From: Haemophilus parainfluenzae | GTDB taxonomy: Bacteria; Pseudomonadota; Gammaproteobacteria; Enterobacterales; Pasteurellaceae | Assembly: GCF_014931415.1 (NCBI RefSeq) | Contig: NZ_CP063121.1 | Span: forward strand, 124,001-188,000 | Reading direction: 5' to 3' | DNA length: 64,000 nucleotides | In this document: positions 57,443 through 64,000 of the stretch, piece by piece | Numbering within the stretch: position 1 is the first letter of the stretch | Layout: each line of letters begins with the position of its first letter | Position numbers and translations under genes: made by a program | The notes under the pieces: generated by a model | Databases searched by the model: none | Seen by the model: the letters and a program-made list of their open reading frames with translations, nothing else | Told to the model about the DNA's origin: nothing

Positions 57443-58297
57443 CTAACCTTTAAAGATAGCGATTAATTCTTTTACTTTAACTCGTTTTTCTGAAGATTGG
57501 CTAATTGAGCGCTGTACTTTAACGCGTTTAAATTTTGCCCCTTTATAAATCTCACGCGTAAATTTCGTATCGTGGTTAGAAATCACCACGGAAATTTGCT
57601 TTTCTTTTTGTGCTTTTTTGGCGCATTCTGCTAAATTCTTTTGATGTTCAAGACCAAAAGCATTCCCTGCATATCCAGTAAAATTGGTATCTTGCGGAAG
57701 CGGTGCATAAGGCGGATCACAATAGATCACACTGTGTTTATCCGCTAATTCAAAGGTCTGTTGAAAATCAGCGCATAAAAAGACCGCACTTTGCGCTTTA
57801 TGGGCGAAATAGCGTAATTCATCTTCAGGGAAATAATGGGTTTTATAAGCGCCAAATGGCACATTGAATTCATTTTTACTGTTATAACGGCACAATCCAT
57901 TAAATCCAAAACGGTTCAAATAAAGGAACAACACCGAACGCTCGAAAGGATCGCTTGATTGATTAAAGGCATCACGCTGGGCGTAATAATAGTCGGCTGT
58001 ATTGGCATTCTCCGCAAAGAAAATTGGCTTACAAGCCTCAATATAGGCATCTACATTTTCCTTGACGATATTAAACAAGTTAATCAAATCAGGATTAATA
58101 TCTGCCAAGATATAACGCTCAAAATGAGAATTAAGAAAAACAGCACCCGCACCCACAAAAGGTTCAATCAAACACTGTTTTCTTTTAGGAAAGACTCGGT
58201 TGAGATCGTCCGTTAAACGGAATTTACCGCCCGCCCATTTTAAAAACGGGCGGTGTTTAATTCGAGGTTTCGTTTTATTATTTTTCGGACGCAACAT
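57443..58297 (-). CDS. dam: DNA adenine methylase
   Basis: 284 residues. AdoMet motif FLKWAGGKFRLTDDL near residue 20, catalytic DPPYAPL near residue 193, and FVGAGAVFLN near residue 48. Methylates GATC, guiding mismatch repair. Third gene of aroK-aroB-dam, 14 bases after aroB; its stop is one base from the dciA stop (convergent, no terminator between). Confidence 0.96.
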   Translation of the reverse strand: MLRPKNNKTKPRIKHRPFLKWAGGKFRLTDDLNRVFPKRKQCLIEPFVGAGAVFLNSHFERYILADINPDLINLFNIVKENVDAYIEACKPIFFAENANTADYYYAQRDAFNQSSDPFERSVLFLYLNRFGFNGLCRYNSKNEFNVPFGAYKTHYFPEDELRYFAHKAQSAVFLCADFQQTFELADKHSVIYCDPPYAPLPQDTNFTGYAGNAFGLEHQKNLAECAKKAQKEKQISVVISNHDTKFTREIYKGAKFKRVKVQRSISQSSEKRVKVKELIAIFKG

Positions 58298-58311
58298 GAG
58301 AGCAATGACAG

Positions 58312-59400
58312 TTAGTCATGTTGTGTGCAACGCTCAATCGCATTTAGCACAAGAGATTTGTCAGTATCAGTCGCCACGTAGGCTTGACCAAGGGCTTTTA
58401 GCAACACAAGACGCAACTTGCCTGCCAACACTTTTTTATCACGCATCATGTGCGGTAAATAATCGTCTGGTTGCATGGTATCAGGCGAAACGGTCGGCAA
58501 ATTAGCACGTGCTAAAAGCTTTTCTAAACGTGCAACATCTTCAAAAGAAAGATCGCCTAATTGTTCAGATAACACCGCAGCCATCATGGTTCCAGCTGCA
58601 ACAGCTTCACCATGTAACCAGTTTCCGTAGCCTAAATGTGTTTCGATCGCATGCCCAAAAGTATGACCGAGATTTAATAATGCACGATCACCTTTTTCAG
58701 TTTCATCGCGCGCAACAACATCCGCTTTGATTTGGCAACAACGCGCAATGCAATGCTGCAGTGAATGTTGATTTAACGCGACTAATTCATCAATATGTGC
58801 TTCAAGCCATTCAAAAAAGGCATAATCTAAAATCGCCCCATATTTAATGACTTCCGCAAGTCCCGCATTCACTTCACGTTTTGGCAAGGTATTGAGTGTA
58901 AGGGTGTCAATGATCACCGTAGAAGGTTGATAAAACGCCCCAATCATATTTTTGCCTAACTCATGATTAACGGCTGTTTTGCCACCAACAGAAGAATCCA
59001 CTTGGGCTAATAATGTGGTAGGAATTTGAATAAAACGCACACCACGCTGATAACTTGCTGCAGCAAAACCTGCCACATCACCAATCACACCACCACCTAA
59101 TGCAATAATGGTGGTATCTCGCCCATGATTATGTTTTAAAAGTGCGGTAAAAATGAGGTTTAAAGAATCGAGCGTTTTGTATTTTTCGCCATCAGGCAAT
59201 AATACCGACTCAACCTGACAGCCGATTTTTTCTAAGGTTTGTGTAACGGTTTCAAGATAATATTGTGCGACAGTTGGATTAGTCACAATCATCACTTTAT
59301 CCCCTTTCTTCAGCGGATAACAGGTTTCATCTTTAAGTAAACCTTCGCCAATATAAATAGGATAACGACGTTCTTTTAATTCAACATTTACGCACAACAT
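58312..59400 (-). CDS. aroB: 3-dehydroquinate synthase
   Basis: 362 residues. Second step of the shikimate pathway. [13 protein letters not shown] near residue 70, [21 protein letters not shown] near residue 100, [13 protein letters not shown] near residue 180, and metal His in [16 protein letters not shown]. 9 bases after aroK. Confidence 0.96.
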
Positions 59401-59409
59401 TTTAAATCC

Positions 59410-59952
59410 TTAGAGTGAACCGTTTAAGCCGTTTAGATTGTCAATTAAATCAACAATTTGATTAACCATTACTTTGGCATTTTGCTCATCTGTTGGTAAG
59501 GTGATATCAGCAATTTCTTCGTATAACGGATTGCGTACTTTGGCTAAATCTTCCAACACTTGGCGCGGGTTATCTGTTCCTTGTAATAAAGGACGTTTTT
59601 TATCACGTTGCGTACGTTGATATTGTTTATCTACTGAAGTTTCTAAATAAATCACAATACCACGAGCAGAAAGATAATTACGATTTTCTTTTGACATCAC
59701 TGCTCCGCCACCAGTGGAAAGCACAACGCCTTGTAATTGGGTTAATTCATTGATAATGCGCTCTTCACGCTTACGAAAGCCTTCTTCGCCTTCTAAATCA
59801 AAAATCCAGCTAATGTCTGCTCCCGCACGTTCCTCAATTACTGCATCTGAATCGACAAAGTCCATATTCAATTGTTGCGCAAGCTGACGGCCAATGGTGC
59901 TTTTACCTGCGCCCATCGGTCCTACTAAAAAAATATTACGTTTTTCAGCCAT
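59410..59952 (-). CDS. aroK: shikimate kinase I
   Basis: 180 residues. P-loop [15 protein letters not shown] at the start, shikimate-binding [18 protein letters not shown] and [14 protein letters not shown], and lid with [10 protein letters not shown]. First gene of aroK-aroB-dam. Confidence 0.96.
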
Positions 59953-60316
59953 TGTTATTCTTCTAACTTAAATAATGTTCAAATTAATCTTTCCTAATAA
60001 AAACTGGCCACCTGAAAAAATGGTAGCCCGAAAGATCACCCAAAAAATAATGGGAATTATCGCAATAAATCCCCCTACGTTTCAACCTTTAGCAGGAATT
60101 TATTTTAAGAAACGCAAAAGTGCGGTCAGTTTTGGGGGATTTTTATGTTCAGACTAAATCTCATTTTCTAAAATGATAGAAAGACCACACTTAAAGAGTG
60201 AGTTTAATGCCTCGTTTTTCAGCTAAAATATCGCTTAGATCGAGCCTTTGAATAGGCTATAAATCAAACATTAAATAATATATAATACCACGTTAAATTA
60301 CATTCTACGTTTAATT
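59953..60316. other. gap between aroK and the DarA-like gene
   Basis: 364 bases. It holds an uptake signal near 60119, a possible coding remnant on the minus strand (59968-60115; see findings), a small dyad AGCC/GGCT near 60250, and a consensus -10 TATAAT at 60281-60286 for the downstream operon. No clear -35 precedes it. No intact gene is credible here. Confidence 0.5.
60281..60286 (+). promoter_or_regulatory. predicted -10 of the DarA/DarB-like operon
   Basis: TATAAT 31 bases before the ATG. The -35 region is poor, so an activator may be needed. Confidence 0.3.
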
Positions 60317-61237
60317 ATGTCTCAATCGAAAAAGCACATTTTAGTTATTTCTTATTCACAAACAGGTCAGTTAAATGAACTGACGCAACATTTTCTTAAA
60401 CTGTTAAAGCAACAAGAAAATATTGTCATTGAAGAATGTCAAATTAAACCAATTCAGCCCTATTCTTTTCCTTGGAAATTTATTCCCTTTTTTAATCAGT
60501 TTCCAGAATCGGTTCATCTCAAACCTGCACCAATTGAAACACCATTATTACAACGTGAAAAATATGATTTAGTCGTCATCGCTTACAGCGTGTGGTTTCT
60601 ATCACCTTCACAACCTATCACTGCATTTTTGCAATCTGAACAAGCTAAAATCTTAAAAAACACGCCTGTCATTACCCTGATTGGCTGCCGTAATATGTGG
60701 TTGATGGCACAAGAAAAAATGAAAAAAATGCTGACCGCACTTGATGCTAATTTAATTGGCAATGTGGTTAAAACGGATCAATCCAATGCTTGGGCAAGCT
60801 TTATTACGACTCCAGCATGGATGTTCAGTGGAAAAAAACGTTATTTTTCATGGCTACCGAGCGCAGGAATTAGTGATGCAGATATGCAAGATATGCAACG
60901 TTTTGGATGTCGTTTAGTTGAAGTTCTGAACGAAAATCGACCTTTAGATAAATCACTTTTCCAAAACATGGGGGCTGTCAAAATTGATGAAAAATTAATG
61001 ATGAGCGAAAAGGTCGGTCACCGCAGTTTTTATATCTGGGGAAAATTGCTGTTAAAGTGTGGTCAAATTTCGCCTGTTTTTCGTCAAGCCGTGCTCTATT
61101 TTTATATCGTATTTTTGATTATACTAATTCTCACTGTTGTACCACTTTCAGCCGTGGTAAAACGCTTATTAAAACCATTATTAAAAGAAAAACTGGCGCG
61201 CCAAAAGCGCTATTTTGCTGAACCGTCAGGGGAATAA
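60317..61237 (+). CDS. DarA-like flavodoxin-fold protein with C-terminal membrane helix
   Basis: 306 residues. Flavodoxin fold with FMN-binding loop VISYSQTGQLNEL near residue 11, VVIAYSVWFLSPSQPITAFL near residue 87 and LIGCRNMWLMAQEKM near residue 121. One membrane helix at about 258-281. This pattern matches proteins annotated as dialkylresorcinol condensing enzyme/aromatase DarA, which act on the product of the DarB ketosynthase. First gene of a tight operon; DarB-like gene starts 2 bases later. Uptake signals are inside the gene, so it is not a recent arrival from outside the family. Function inferred. Confidence 0.75.
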   Translation: MSQSKKHILVISYSQTGQLNELTQHFLKLLKQQENIVIEECQIKPIQPYSFPWKFIPFFNQFPESVHLKPAPIETPLLQREKYDLVVIAYSVWFLSPSQPITAFLQSEQAKILKNTPVITLIGCRNMWLMAQEKMKKMLTALDANLIGNVVKTDQSNAWASFITTPAWMFSGKKRYFSWLPSAGISDADMQDMQRFGCRLVEVLNENRPLDKSLFQNMGAVKIDEKLMMSEKVGHRSFYIWGKLLLKCGQISPVFRQAVLYFYIVFLIILILTVVPLSAVVKRLLKPLLKEKLARQKRYFAEPSGE

Positions 61238-61239
61238 TT

Positions 61240-62400
61240 TTGACTTCACTACATGATGTTTATATTAATCGAGTTGCTGCATTTTTACCAAATGAACCCA
61301 TAACAAATGATCAAATGGAACAAGTACTCGGTATGATTGGTAATACACCATCCCGTGTACGTAAAATGATCTTACGTTCGAATGCGATAAAAACGCGTCA
61401 TTATGCAATTAATCCGGAAACCCGAGAAACGACACATACTAGCACTGAGCTTGCAGTAGAAGCCATTAATGATTTAATTCGCCAAGGGATGAATGTCAAT
61501 GAGGTGAGTTGCTTAGCATGCGGTACCTCTTATCCCGATCAAATTATGCCTGGGCAAGGTGTCATGGTACATGGTTTGATTCCTAATGCCCCACCTTATG
61601 AAGTGCTGACAACCGCGGGAGTTTGTGTAGCAGGTATGGCTGCAATGAAGCATGCTTATAATGCCGTTCGAACTGGTGAACATCAAAGTTCAATTGCCGT
61701 GGCATCTGAAGCGGCATCTGCCATCATGCGTGGTGAACATTTTCAAGCCGAAATTGAACAAAGACTGTTAGATGAAGCTAAACCGGAAATTGGTTTTGAA
61801 AAAGATTTCCTACGCTGGATGCTTTCTGACGGCGCTGGCGCTGTACAATTAAGTCATCAACCCAACAAACATGGTCTCAGCTTAAAGATCCACTGGATTG
61901 ATCTCATTTCTTACGCCAACGAAATGCCTGTTTGTATGTATGCGGGTGCAGAGATTCGTGATGAACAATTTGTGAGTTGGAAAAACGTCACTAAAGAAGA
62001 GCGTGAAGCGCGCAGCCTGATGGCCGTCAAACAAGATGTCAAATTACTCAATGAAAATATTGTGCGTTGCACGGTTGAAAATGCGCTATTACGCTTAATT
62101 GATAAATATGATTTAAAAGCGGATGAAATTGATTATTTCTTACCTCATTATTCTTCAGGCTTTTTCCGAGATAAATTATTAGATGGTCTGAAAAATATTA
62201 ATTTCGAGATTCCACAAGAAAAATGGTTTACTAATCTTGAAAGCAAAGGTAATACAGGCTCAGCATCGATTTATATCATTTTACAAGAGTTTCTAGAGAC
62301 ATTCCCACTCAAAAATGGGCAAAAAGTATTGTGCTATATTCCAGAGAGCGGTCGTTTCTCCTCTTGTTTTATGCTACTAGAGGTCGTGAATGGACATTAA
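61240..62400 (+). CDS. DarB-like beta-ketoacyl-ACP synthase III
   Basis: 386 residues of the thiolase fold. The Cys-His-Asn triad is complete: Cys129 in TTAGVCVAGM, His303 in YFLPHYSSG, Asn338 in SKGNTGSASIY. Longer than FabH (about 317) and closer to DarB/StlD enzymes that join a beta-ketoacyl unit to a second acyl chain. The start is TTG 61240 with AGGGGA upstream; the in-register ATGs nearby are out of frame. It overlaps the next gene by 11 bases. FabH-like housekeeping is unlikely given the context. Confidence 0.8.
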   Translation: MTSLHDVYINRVAAFLPNEPITNDQMEQVLGMIGNTPSRVRKMILRSNAIKTRHYAINPETRETTHTSTELAVEAINDLIRQGMNVNEVSCLACGTSYPDQIMPGQGVMVHGLIPNAPPYEVLTTAGVCVAGMAAMKHAYNAVRTGEHQSSIAVASEAASAIMRGEHFQAEIEQRLLDEAKPEIGFEKDFLRWMLSDGAGAVQLSHQPNKHGLSLKIHWIDLISYANEMPVCMYAGAEIRDEQFVSWKNVTKEEREARSLMAVKQDVKLLNENIVRCTVENALLRLIDKYDLKADEIDYFLPHYSSGFFRDKLLDGLKNINFEIPQEKWFTNLESKGNTGSASIYIILQEFLETFPLKNGQKVLCYIPESGRFSSCFMLLEVVNGH

Positions 62401-62779
62401 TGAAATCCCACAAGATGACAGTAAAATTTTCCGTGGGCAAAAGAAAGTCATTTATGCCACTCAAAATGGTCATTATAAAACTGGCACCACGACAGGTTGG
62501 GATACGGAAGCATTTGTTACAGAACAAGCGGTTGAAGAATTTAACCAACTAACCAATGAAGCCTTAGATGCGGTAAAACGCGGTGAAAAATCACCGCTCT
62601 TTTATTATATGTACCGTTATCGTTTCGATCTTCAAACGCTCGCTCAAACCACAGGGTTTTGGCAGTGGCAAATTAAGCGACATTTTAAACCAAGCATCTT
62701 TGATAAACTCTCGGATAATGTATTAGCTAAATATGCAGAAGCATTTGGTGTATCAACTTCAACATTAAAAACGATCTAA
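62390..62779 (+). CDS. 129-residue protein of unknown function
   Basis: Starts 11 bases inside the end of the ketosynthase gene. N-terminal half is hydrophilic (SKIFRGQKKVIYATQNGHYK); the C-terminal half, DLQTLAQTTGFWQWQIKRHF and LSDNVLAKYAEAFGVSTSTL, has the look of a helix-turn-helix or four-helix fold. No signal peptide. I do not recognise a family. Its position between a ketosynthase and an acyltransferase suggests a carrier, chaperone or regulator. Confidence 0.7.
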   Translation: MDINEIPQDDSKIFRGQKKVIYATQNGHYKTGTTTGWDTEAFVTEQAVEEFNQLTNEALDAVKRGEKSPLFYYMYRYRFDLQTLAQTTGFWQWQIKRHFKPSIFDKLSDNVLAKYAEAFGVSTSTLKTI

Positions 62780-62805
62780 AAAATAACAGTGATATATTAA
62801 TTTTT

Positions 62806-63795
62806 ATGAACAATTTCCAGCATCAGCACACGGCTCACTGCGAAAGTGGTGTCATGTCCACTATGTTGAAAGCACAAGGTGTCGATTTTAACGAAGCGAT
62901 GGTTTTCGGCTTAGCCTCAGCGTTGACTCTTGTTTATATTCCATTAGTCAAAGTCAATGGAATGCCACTTATATCCTACCGCATGCCACCAAAATCTATC
63001 ATTAAAAATGTGGCAAAACGTTTAAAAGTGCGGTTAAAAATACAAAAGTTTCGTGCACCACAAGCTGGACAAGAAGCACTCGATCTCGCATTGGCCGAAA
63101 ATAAATTAGTTGGTTTACAAACTTCTGTTTTCTGGTTGCCTTATTTCCCACCAGAGATGCGTTTCCATTTTAATGCACATAATCTGATCGTATACGGCAA
63201 AGAGCAAAATGACTACTTAATTAGCGATCCTGTCTTTGAAACCGTACAGCGTTGTGCGGCTGAAGATTTACAACGTGCGCGTTTTGTGAAAGGCGTACTA
63301 GCGCCAAAAGGGTTGATGTATTACTTTGAAAGCCAACCTGACTTAACGAAGATTGATTTACCAAGTATTACCCGTAAAGCGATTCGAAAAAATGCGAAGC
63401 AAATGTTAGCACCACTCTTTTTCGTCGGTGTAAAAGGCATTCATACCGTTGCAAAACAAATTGAAAAGCTAGCAAATCACCCTTCAGACAAATACAAACG
63501 CTTATATCTGGGTCACATCGTGCGTATGCAAGAAGAAATCGGCACTGGCGGTGCAGGTTTCCGCTATTTATACGCCTATTTCCTTGAACAAGCCGCTGAT
63601 ATCTGCCAAGAGCCAAAATACAAACAGGCTTCTGAACACATGACGGAAATCGGTGACATGTGGCGTCAATTTGCGGGATTATGTGTGAAACAATGTAAGA
63701 AGCCTACAATCGAAGGGTATCATACCGTAGCGGAATATTTGCGTGACATTGCAAATAAAGAACAACAAATTTGGCAGACATTACGTAATTTATGA
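62806..63795 (+). CDS. BtrH-like acyltransferase (BtrH_N plus DUF4872)
   Basis: 329 residues. N-terminal HQHTAHCESGVMSTML (Cys12) matches the BtrH_N papain-like acyltransferase motif HCxSG. FHFNAHNLIVYG and DYLISDPVFE supply the likely His and Asp. The C-terminal part fits DUF4872. BtrH moves an acyl chain from an acyl carrier protein to an antibiotic core in butirosin synthesis. Here it may release the ketosynthase product from a carrier. It overlaps the ABC gene (ATGA). A coding uptake signal gives KVRLKI. Confidence 0.75.
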   Translation: MNNFQHQHTAHCESGVMSTMLKAQGVDFNEAMVFGLASALTLVYIPLVKVNGMPLISYRMPPKSIIKNVAKRLKVRLKIQKFRAPQAGQEALDLALAENKLVGLQTSVFWLPYFPPEMRFHFNAHNLIVYGKEQNDYLISDPVFETVQRCAAEDLQRARFVKGVLAPKGLMYYFESQPDLTKIDLPSITRKAIRKNAKQMLAPLFFVGVKGIHTVAKQIEKLANHPSDKYKRLYLGHIVRMQEEIGTGGAGFRYLYAYFLEQAADICQEPKYKQASEHMTEIGDMWRQFAGLCVKQCKKPTIEGYHTVAEYLRDIANKEQQIWQTLRNL

Positions 63796-64000
63796 TTCAA
63801 ATAAATAATCTTAGCCATCTCTACCCTAACGCAGAAAAAAATGCATTAAGTGCGGTCAATTTTGATATTGAATCAGCTTCCACGGTTGGACTTTTAGGTC
63901 CGAATGGTGCAGGTAAAACGACCTTGATGTCTCTACTTGCTGGGTTGCAATCTGTGCAACAAGGAGAAATTTATTTTGACGGTGTACCTTTTGCAAAATT
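63792..64000 (+). CDS. ABC transporter ATP-binding protein (3' end outside window)
   Basis: Starts at ATG 63792, overlapping the previous stop by 4 bases. The first 69 residues read MIQINNLSHLYPNAEKNAL and then Walker A GLLGPNGAGKTTLMSLLAG. Contains an uptake signal in frame (SAVNF). Probable exporter ATPase for the lipid or acylated product of this operon; a permease gene should follow beyond 64000. Confidence 0.9.
   Translation, partial: MIQINNLSHLYPNAEKNALSAVNFDIESASTVGLLGPNGAGKTTLMSLLAGLQSVQQGEIYFDGVPFAK

What the first reader, a model, noticed from the sequence alone, without database searches (positions are those of the whole stretch)
60317..64000. Compact DarA/DarB/BtrH/ABC operon: candidate undescribed acyl or resorcinol lipid pathway in a Haemophilus
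Seen: five genes with gaps or overlaps of +2, -11, +26 and -4 bases. They encode a membrane-anchored flavodoxin, a full-triad KAS III, an unknown, a BtrH-type acyltransferase and an ABC ATPase. Known: DarB condenses acyl units and DarA aromatises the ring in dialkylresorcinol synthesis; BtrH transfers acyl groups from a carrier. Inference: the operon builds a ketone or alkyl-aromatic lipid, transfers it to an acceptor or membrane, and exports it. Haemophilus lipids of this kind are not known to me. Uptake signals in every gene except the 129-residue one suggest long residence in Pasteurellaceae.
Basis: partly seen in the sequence, partly recalled or inferred. Interest (0 to 1): 0.8.

Follow-up and report, generated by a model that had tools for sequence, protein, structure and literature searches.

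The report
Pigment-lipid operon in a Haemophilus
The five genes are the start of a known kind of gene cluster that probably makes a yellow membrane pigment (an aryl polyene joined to a dialkylresorcinol), here in a Haemophilus parainfluenzae-like bacterium; less expected is that relatives often carry extra genes, several of them phage-defence-like, inside this operon.

Summary
The operon is real and was read well: five co-directional genes, 60317-64000, gaps +2, -11, +26, -4. It is not an undescribed pathway. Its order, DarA-DarB-(129 aa)-BtrH-ABC ATPase, is that of the dialkylresorcinol (dar) operon of Azoarcus BH72, whose pigment arcuflavin is proposed to be a resorcinol esterified to an aryl polyene; NCBIfam has models for genes 2, 3 and 4. 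In a congener (G073), at the same site, the operon runs on into permease, carrier protein and ketosynthase and then an aryl-polyene cluster. All 35 of 140 Pasteurellaceae genomes with DarB also have the polyene dehydratase ApeP. The nearest genome, G001, lacks the ~24.5 kb block. The window thus most likely holds the resorcinol half of an arcuflavin/flexirubin-type cluster: a new member of a known kind. Added here: DarH (BtrH-type) tracks DarB (34 of 35 in the family, 12 of 12 in a phylum sample); the 129-aa protein may end in a helix-turn-helix fold; and the dar operon is an insertion hot spot (29 of 35 genomes), with cargo matching Shedu, DRT8, RhuM-type and toxin-antitoxin families. The window shows an empty version. 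Chemistry and cargo function are untested.

The parts
60118..60126 (+). Uptake signal core AAGTGCGGT near the left border of the cluster; homology to the cluster-less genome G001 ends shortly after it (window 60147)
60317..61237 (+). darA: flavodoxin-fold protein with a long hydrophobic C-terminal helix, dialkylresorcinol condensing enzyme/aromatase
   Evidence: 98% identical P0010 named 'dialkylresorcinol condensing enzyme [Haemophilus parainfluenzae]'; profile match to flavodoxin-type proteins; AlphaFold model pLDDT 91 with flavodoxin matches
61240..62400 (+). darB: StlD/DarB family ketosynthase, intact Cys-His-Asn triad
62390..62779 (+). darD in the Azoarcus naming (NCBIfam: DarG family), 129 aa; modelled with a disordered start and a helical C-terminal domain like Cro/CI-type helix-turn-helix proteins (about residues 63-129)
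62806..63795 (+). darE in the Azoarcus naming (NCBIfam: DarH), BtrH-related acyltransferase, BtrH_N + DUF4872, conserved His11-Cys12-Glu13
63792..64000 (+). darF: ABC transporter ATP-binding protein, first 69 codons; gene runs off the window

Best explanation
The five genes are the first part of a dialkylresorcinol (dar) operon that belongs to a hybrid aryl polyene-dialkylresorcinol pigment cluster of the arcuflavin/flexirubin type. DarB condenses two acyl chains to a cyclohexanedione and DarA, held at the inner membrane by its C-terminal helix, aromatises it to the resorcinol. The polyene half, started from a hydroxybenzoate, is built by aryl polyene genes that should follow beyond 64000. The BtrH-type protein (NCBIfam DarH) most likely moves the finished polyene acyl group from its carrier protein onto a hydroxyl of the resorcinol, making the ester. 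The ABC transporter and the RND/Lol-type proteins carry the pigment lipid towards the outer membrane. Shown here: families, gene order, site, co-occurrence. From literature or recall: DarA/DarB chemistry and the ester proposed for arcuflavin. Inferred: the BtrH step, membrane anchoring, export, and that this strain carries the rest of the cluster.
For: NCBIfam: gene 2 StlD/DarB subfamily, gene 3 DarG family, gene 4 DarH equivalog, all over cut-off. Azoarcus order darA-darB-darD-darE(BtrH-like)-darF(ABC ATPase)-[2 genes]-darI(permease)-darC(ACP)-darJ(KS)-darK equals, inserts apart, the order in G073 and, as far as it goes, the window. In G073 a polyene set follows, much like apeA-apeR of E. coli CFT073 without apeB. 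Same site: window 57443-60316 is 95% identical to G073; G001 is 96% identical up to window 60147 and its match to G073 resumes at the stop codon of the last polyene gene. ApeP is in 35 of 35 Pasteurellaceae genomes with DarB over cut-off, and in 51 of 140 overall. DarB and DarH over cut-off occur in the same 12 of 398 Pseudomonadota genomes; 7 further genomes with weaker DarB-like proteins (E <= 1e-80) lack DarH. Two genomes with polyene genes but no DarB or DarH (G015, G016) keep both AMP-ligases, so the second ligase is not tied to the resorcinol half, while DarH is.
Against: The window ends in the fifth gene and its own assembly is not held, so the polyene half is not seen in this strain. 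DarB scores below NCBIfam's narrower 'resorcinol_DarB' cut-off (459 against 550). Three of the 12 DarB+DarH genomes of the phylum sample have neither ApeP nor ApeI over cut-off; one of them, G500, has other polyene-like genes next to dar, and G420 and G515 show none in the 20 kb taken. In Pasteurellaceae G033 has DarH without DarB and G094 DarB without DarH. G015 and G016 may have lost the dar half later. No chemistry for Haemophilus turned up in the searches made.
Confidence: 0.86

Rival explanations
1. The window holds a free dialkylresorcinol pathway (signal or antioxidant) with no polyene partner; the BtrH protein acylates something else.
For: darB and darA of Chitinophaga pinensis alone gave a dialkylresorcinol on heterologous expression (PMC3992019, passages). 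Two DarB+DarH genomes (G420, G515) show no polyene genes within the 20 kb taken and no ApeP.
Against: All 35 Pasteurellaceae genomes with DarB have ApeP; the congener with the operon at the same site has the polyene set downstream.
Confidence: 0.07
2. It is the hybrid cluster, but an AMP-ligase-like enzyme (as proposed for FlxW of Chitinophaga) joins polyene and resorcinol, and the BtrH-type protein has another task, for example handing the resorcinol to the ABC transporter.
For: FlxW was suggested as the joining enzyme (PMC3992019, passages). The BtrH gene overlaps the ABC ATPase gene.
Against: G015 and G016, with polyene genes but no DarB or DarH, hold both AMP-ligases; G014 holds one; the stretch taken from G140 showed none of these genes (4 of the 16 ApeP genomes without DarB were fetched). 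G015 and G016 may have lost the dar half, so this is weak.
Confidence: 0.25
3. Housekeeping fatty acid genes: a FabH-like synthase beside an NAD(P)H quinone reductase.
For: KAS III family match and flavodoxin/WrbA-type fold matches.
Against: Far below the FabH cut-offs; closest solved structure is StlD; G001 lacks the operon; G073 has a separate FabH-looking gene by eye.
Confidence: 0.01

Closest known systems
dar operon of Azoarcus sp. BH72 (arcuflavin; PMC3949708, sections 18 and 22 read, other passages)
   Same: Order darA, darB, small conserved protein, BtrH-like, ABC ATPase, then permease, ACP, ketosynthase, darK (the later genes compared through G073).
   Different: Azoarcus has two polyene loci that are not linked to each other, one of them about twenty genes from dar by locus number, and a XanB2-type enzyme for the starter; in G073 dar and an E. 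coli-like polyene set form one block and no XanB2-type enzyme was recognised. Azoarcus has Phd and PilT/PIN genes between ATPase and permease; G073 has a HEPN-like gene before the ATPase; the window has no insert at the four junctions it shows.
Flexirubin clusters of Bacteroidota (Chitinophaga pinensis, Flavobacterium johnsoniae; PMC3992019, abstract and passages)
   Same: Polyene acid esterified with a dialkylresorcinol; the Chitinophagaceae locus L063 keeps DarA-DarB-DarD-BtrH-ABC-permease.
   Different: The Chitinophaga pathway starts with a tyrosine ammonia-lyase; none was recognised in G073.
Aryl polyene cluster of E. coli CFT073 (PMC8253772, passages with Table 1)
   Same: By family and position G073 has counterparts of apeA and apeC to apeR in nearly the same order.
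   Different: No apeB methyltransferase recognised; glycosyltransferase and acyltransferase (apeJ) are separate genes; an AMP-ligase fused to an ApeI-type dehydratase stands besides a second AMP-ligase; a whole dar operon in front.
Ketosynthase StlD (PDB 5gk0)
   Same: Same ketosynthase subfamily and catalytic triad.
   Different: The gene surroundings of StlD were not examined here.

Membership tests
dialkylresorcinol (dar) operon | DarB: StlD/DarB family ketosynthase with Cys-His-Asn | tested here: met
   (582 bits, cut-off 450), for the triad
dialkylresorcinol (dar) operon | DarB over NCBIfam's narrower resorcinol_DarB exception model (a sub-group, not needed for the operon as a whole) | tested here: not met
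   459 bits, cut-off 550; the broader subfamily model is met
dialkylresorcinol (dar) operon | DarA flavodoxin-like aromatase next to DarB | tested here: met
   by neighbour's name and fold, no curated model hit
dialkylresorcinol (dar) operon | DarG_fam (DarD) and DarH (DarE) following | tested here: met
   185 bits (cut-off 70) and 510 bits (cut-off 300)
dialkylresorcinol (dar) operon | makes a 2,5-dialkylresorcinol | not testable with these tools
   needs LC-MS
aryl polyene-dialkylresorcinol hybrid (arcuflavin/flexirubin type) | aryl polyene genes in the same genome | tested here: inconclusive
   own assembly not held; present in G073 where dar lies at the same site and ApeP in 35 of 35 DarB-bearing family members
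aryl polyene-dialkylresorcinol hybrid (arcuflavin/flexirubin type) | ester between polyene acid and resorcinol | not testable with these tools
   needs MS of the pigment
housekeeping FabH | FabH model over cut-off | tested here: not met
   62.7 bits, cut-off 292.1
Cro/CI-type helix-turn-helix protein (gene 3) | HTH fold of the C-terminal domain | tested here: inconclusive

The most novel reading that the evidence does not exclude
In Pasteurellaceae the dar operon is a docking site for small anti-phage and addiction genes: defence-like cargo slots in, mostly co-directionally, between the small HTH-like gene, the BtrH gene and the ABC genes, is expressed with the pigment operon, and travels with it between strains by transformation. 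The window is the empty allele, G073 an occupied one.
Probability: 0.42. Interest if true: 0.62.

Novelty: new member of a known kind. Interest (0 to 1): 0.45.

Why it matters
It places an arcuflavin/flexirubin-type pigment pathway in a Haemophilus, where such lipids could bear on oxidative stress and colonisation, and points to one gene (BtrH-type DarH) to test for the ester-forming step. The insertion hot spot inside the operon, if its cargo is defence, would show a biosynthetic operon used again and again as a landing and expression site for phage-defence genes.

Tried and rejected
Housekeeping FabH and quinone reductase reading: rejected by family scores and the StlD match. The uptake-signal argument for long residence: weak, the 9-mer is absent from gene 2. 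PDB sequence searches for gene 3 and gene 4 found nothing convincing. Co-occurrence of DarB/DarH with polyene genes outside Pasteurellaceae is 9 of 12 by ApeP and 9 of 12 by ApeI, not complete (one of the 12 is itself a Pasteurellaceae genome, G120). PADLOC hits are not all specific: of 10 random window proteins one (the Dam-type methylase at 57446) scored over 100 bits and a helicase 92. In the polyene half, used as control, 23 of 39 genomes also have a gap over 300 bases; 15 of its 27 such gaps hold one constant FAD-dependent gene, 4 hold genes of the cluster itself, and 8 look like cargo (by eye), so cargo is not confined to the dar half. Gaps over 5000 bases were not scored.
Full report
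What is there. The five genes stand as described: 60317-61237, 61240-62400, 62390-62779, 62806-63795 and an ATPase gene from 63792 that the window cuts off. Against NCBIfam, gene 2 is a StlD/DarB-family ketosynthase (582 bits, cut-off 450; the narrower resorcinol_DarB model is missed, 459 against 550), gene 3 a DarG-family protein (185, cut-off 70), gene 4 the BtrH-related acyltransferase DarH (510, cut-off 300). Pfam gives BtrH_N and DUF4872 for gene 4. Gene 1 has no model hit at 1e-3 in Pfam or NCBIfam, but the 98% identical P0010 is named dialkylresorcinol condensing enzyme of Haemophilus parainfluenzae, its family profile finds flavodoxin-type proteins in the PDB (best E 1e-4), and its AlphaFold model (mean pLDDT 91) matches flavodoxins and WrbA (best Foldseek E 2e-6), with a 49-residue terminal helix. 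Gene 2's Cys129, His303 and Asn338 align with StlD.

Match to a described operon. In Azoarcus BH72 the order is darA, darB, darD, darE (BtrH-like), darF (ABC ATPase), two genes annotated prevent-host-death and PilT domain, darI (permease), darC (ACP), darJ (ketosynthase), darK (PMC3949708, section 18). The congener G073 has DarA, DarB, the 129-aa protein, BtrH, one extra gene, ATPase, permease, ACP, a ketosynthase-like protein and a 195-aa protein in the place of darK (ATPase by its match in the locus comparison; the 195-aa protein by position only). Names clash: Azoarcus darD and darE are NCBIfam's DarG and DarH. For arcuflavin the authors propose, from MS data, a polyene acid joined by an ester to a resorcinol hydroxyl (section 22).

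The rest of the cluster. In G073 there follow a small lipoprotein, a ketosynthase N-domain protein, an acyltransferase, two ACPs, an AMP-ligase/ApeI fusion, a membrane protein, a second AMP-ligase, glycosyltransferase, LpxL-type acyltransferase, thioesterase, LolA, an exporter, a lipoprotein, ketosynthase, ApeP, ketoreductase and ketosynthase. Lipoproteins, membrane protein, exporter and second ACP are named by eye; the exporter and second ACP were not scanned. E. coli CFT073 apeA-apeR reads much the same (PMC8253772 Table 1, passages). I recognised no ammonia-lyase, XanB2-type enzyme or apeB-type methyltransferase. 4-Hydroxybenzoate is the start unit proposed for E. coli and my inference here.

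Site. Window 57443-60316 is 95% identical to G073. G001, nearest by shared words and 96% identical there, matches up to window 60147; against G073 its match stops about 160 bases before darA and resumes at the stop codon of the last polyene gene, with 60 unmatched bases between. So a block of about 24.5 kb is present or absent at one place. An uptake signal at 60118 sits near the left border, and G001 has a facing pair of uptake signals there. Spread by transformation is an inference from this.

Co-occurrence. Of 140 Pasteurellaceae genomes, 35 have DarB over cut-off, 35 have a DarH match, 34 have both (G033 only DarH, G094 only DarB); 51 have ApeP, including all 35 with DarB. Of the 16 with ApeP but no DarB, 15 lack DarH. 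Of 398 Pseudomonadota genomes, the 12 with DarB over cut-off are the 12 with DarH over cut-off; 7 more have DarB-like proteins (E <= 1e-80) under the cut-off and none of these 7 has DarH. ApeP is over cut-off in 9 of the 12 and 3 of the 7, ApeI likewise. Of the three without, G500 has other polyene-like genes beside dar; G420 and G515 show none in 20 kb. Genomes are related, so these are not independent events.

The joining step. DarH goes with DarB, not with the polyene genes alone; its His11-Cys12-Glu13 is found in 65 of the 66 loci with a DarH match, at most one lacking or not covering it (the set holds some genomes twice, as G genome and as named record). Two genomes with polyene genes and no dar (G015, G016) keep both AMP-ligases and G014 keeps one (4 of 16 such genomes fetched, the stretch from G140 showed none of these genes). 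I therefore favour DarH over a ligase for the ester, at about 0.6; this remains inference.

A hot spot. Gaps between neighbouring dar genes in the 35 DarH genomes: 55 of 252 scored junctions exceed 300 bases, against 27 of 445 in the polyene half of 39 genomes (the 35 plus 4 without dar) (Fisher p 1.5e-9, not corrected for relatedness). Of the 27, 15 hold one constant FAD-dependent gene, 4 genes of the cluster itself and 8 cargo-like genes, all by eye. Twenty-nine of 35 genomes have at least one dar insert; of the six without, G020 and G081 had only part of the operon in the stretch. Most inserts lie at DarD|BtrH (24 of 33) and BtrH|ATPase (20 of 35); none at three other junctions. Of 79 insert ORFs of 85 aa or more (gaps over 150 bases), 68 run with the operon. 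PADLOC on 30 of 49 cluster representatives gave 9 over 100 bits: RhuM-type PDC-S05 (11 genomes, one a fragment), Shedu SduA (2), HEC-01A and HEC-01B (the same 2), DRT8 (1, in G033, whose stretch shows no DarA or DarB), PDC-S02 (1), and in one genome a PtuA-like ATPase, a ThsB-like TIR protein and PDC-M50A (membership by blastp clusters): 15 of 35 genomes. I take PDC and HEC names as candidates only, and ThsB was seen without a partner. The other 21 representatives gave no hit or weaker ones, G073's insert among them. The control of 10 window proteins gave 1 over 100 bits (Dam methylase). Further cargo: a Y1 transposase-like gene (8 genomes), Phd/PIN pairs (2), a TacA/GNAT pair (1). G073's insert is a 398-aa protein just under the HEPN_Swt1 cut-off. 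The window shows no insert at its four junctions. Two paper searches (12 of 80 titles listed, 4 listed) showed hot-spot papers on other taxa and none that the listing ties to dar; I read none of them.

What is in print for Haemophilus. Searches with Haemophilus or H. parainfluenzae plus dialkylresorcinol, resorcinol or aryl polyene showed no listed title on such a lipid in Haemophilus; one search returned none. Aggregatibacter aryl polyene clusters are reported (36 in A. actinomycetemcomitans, PMC8549736, passages; also PMC11278768, passages). Only open-licence papers are held, and not every hit was opened.

Verdict. A real, well-read operon of a known kind, extended to a Haemophilus; moderate interest, mostly for the testable DarH step and the insertion hot spot.

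Noticed in passing
L075-L109 (dar operons of 35 Pasteurellaceae genomes): Variable extra genes inside the dar operon, mostly between the 129-aa gene, BtrH and the ABC ATPase; several match phage-defence or toxin-antitoxin families.
   Followed up: partly
L067:14700-15893 (minus strand), G073: 398-aa HEPN_Swt1-like gene (26.9 bits, cut-off 27.5; no PADLOC hit) between BtrH and the ABC ATPase, where the window has a 4-base overlap.
   Followed up: partly
window 60118-60147 and L118:3520-3760: The ~24.5 kb cluster is present or absent at one site beside aroK; an uptake signal lies near the left border.
   Followed up: yes
G081:C1:578049 and G081:C1:617967; G020:C39 and G020:C6: The dar operon looks split: DarB and BtrH lie about 39 kb apart in G081 and on different contigs in G020.
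   Followed up: no
polyene half, junction exporter|lipoprotein (loci): A FAD-dependent gene of about 411 aa (halogenase-like by eye, not tested) sits in 15 of 27 scored genomes, but not in G073.
   Followed up: no
   Followed up: no
window 62390-63795: NCBIfam's DarG and DarH are not the darG and darH of the Azoarcus paper (there the prevent-host-death and PilT-domain genes); the names clash.
   Followed up: yes
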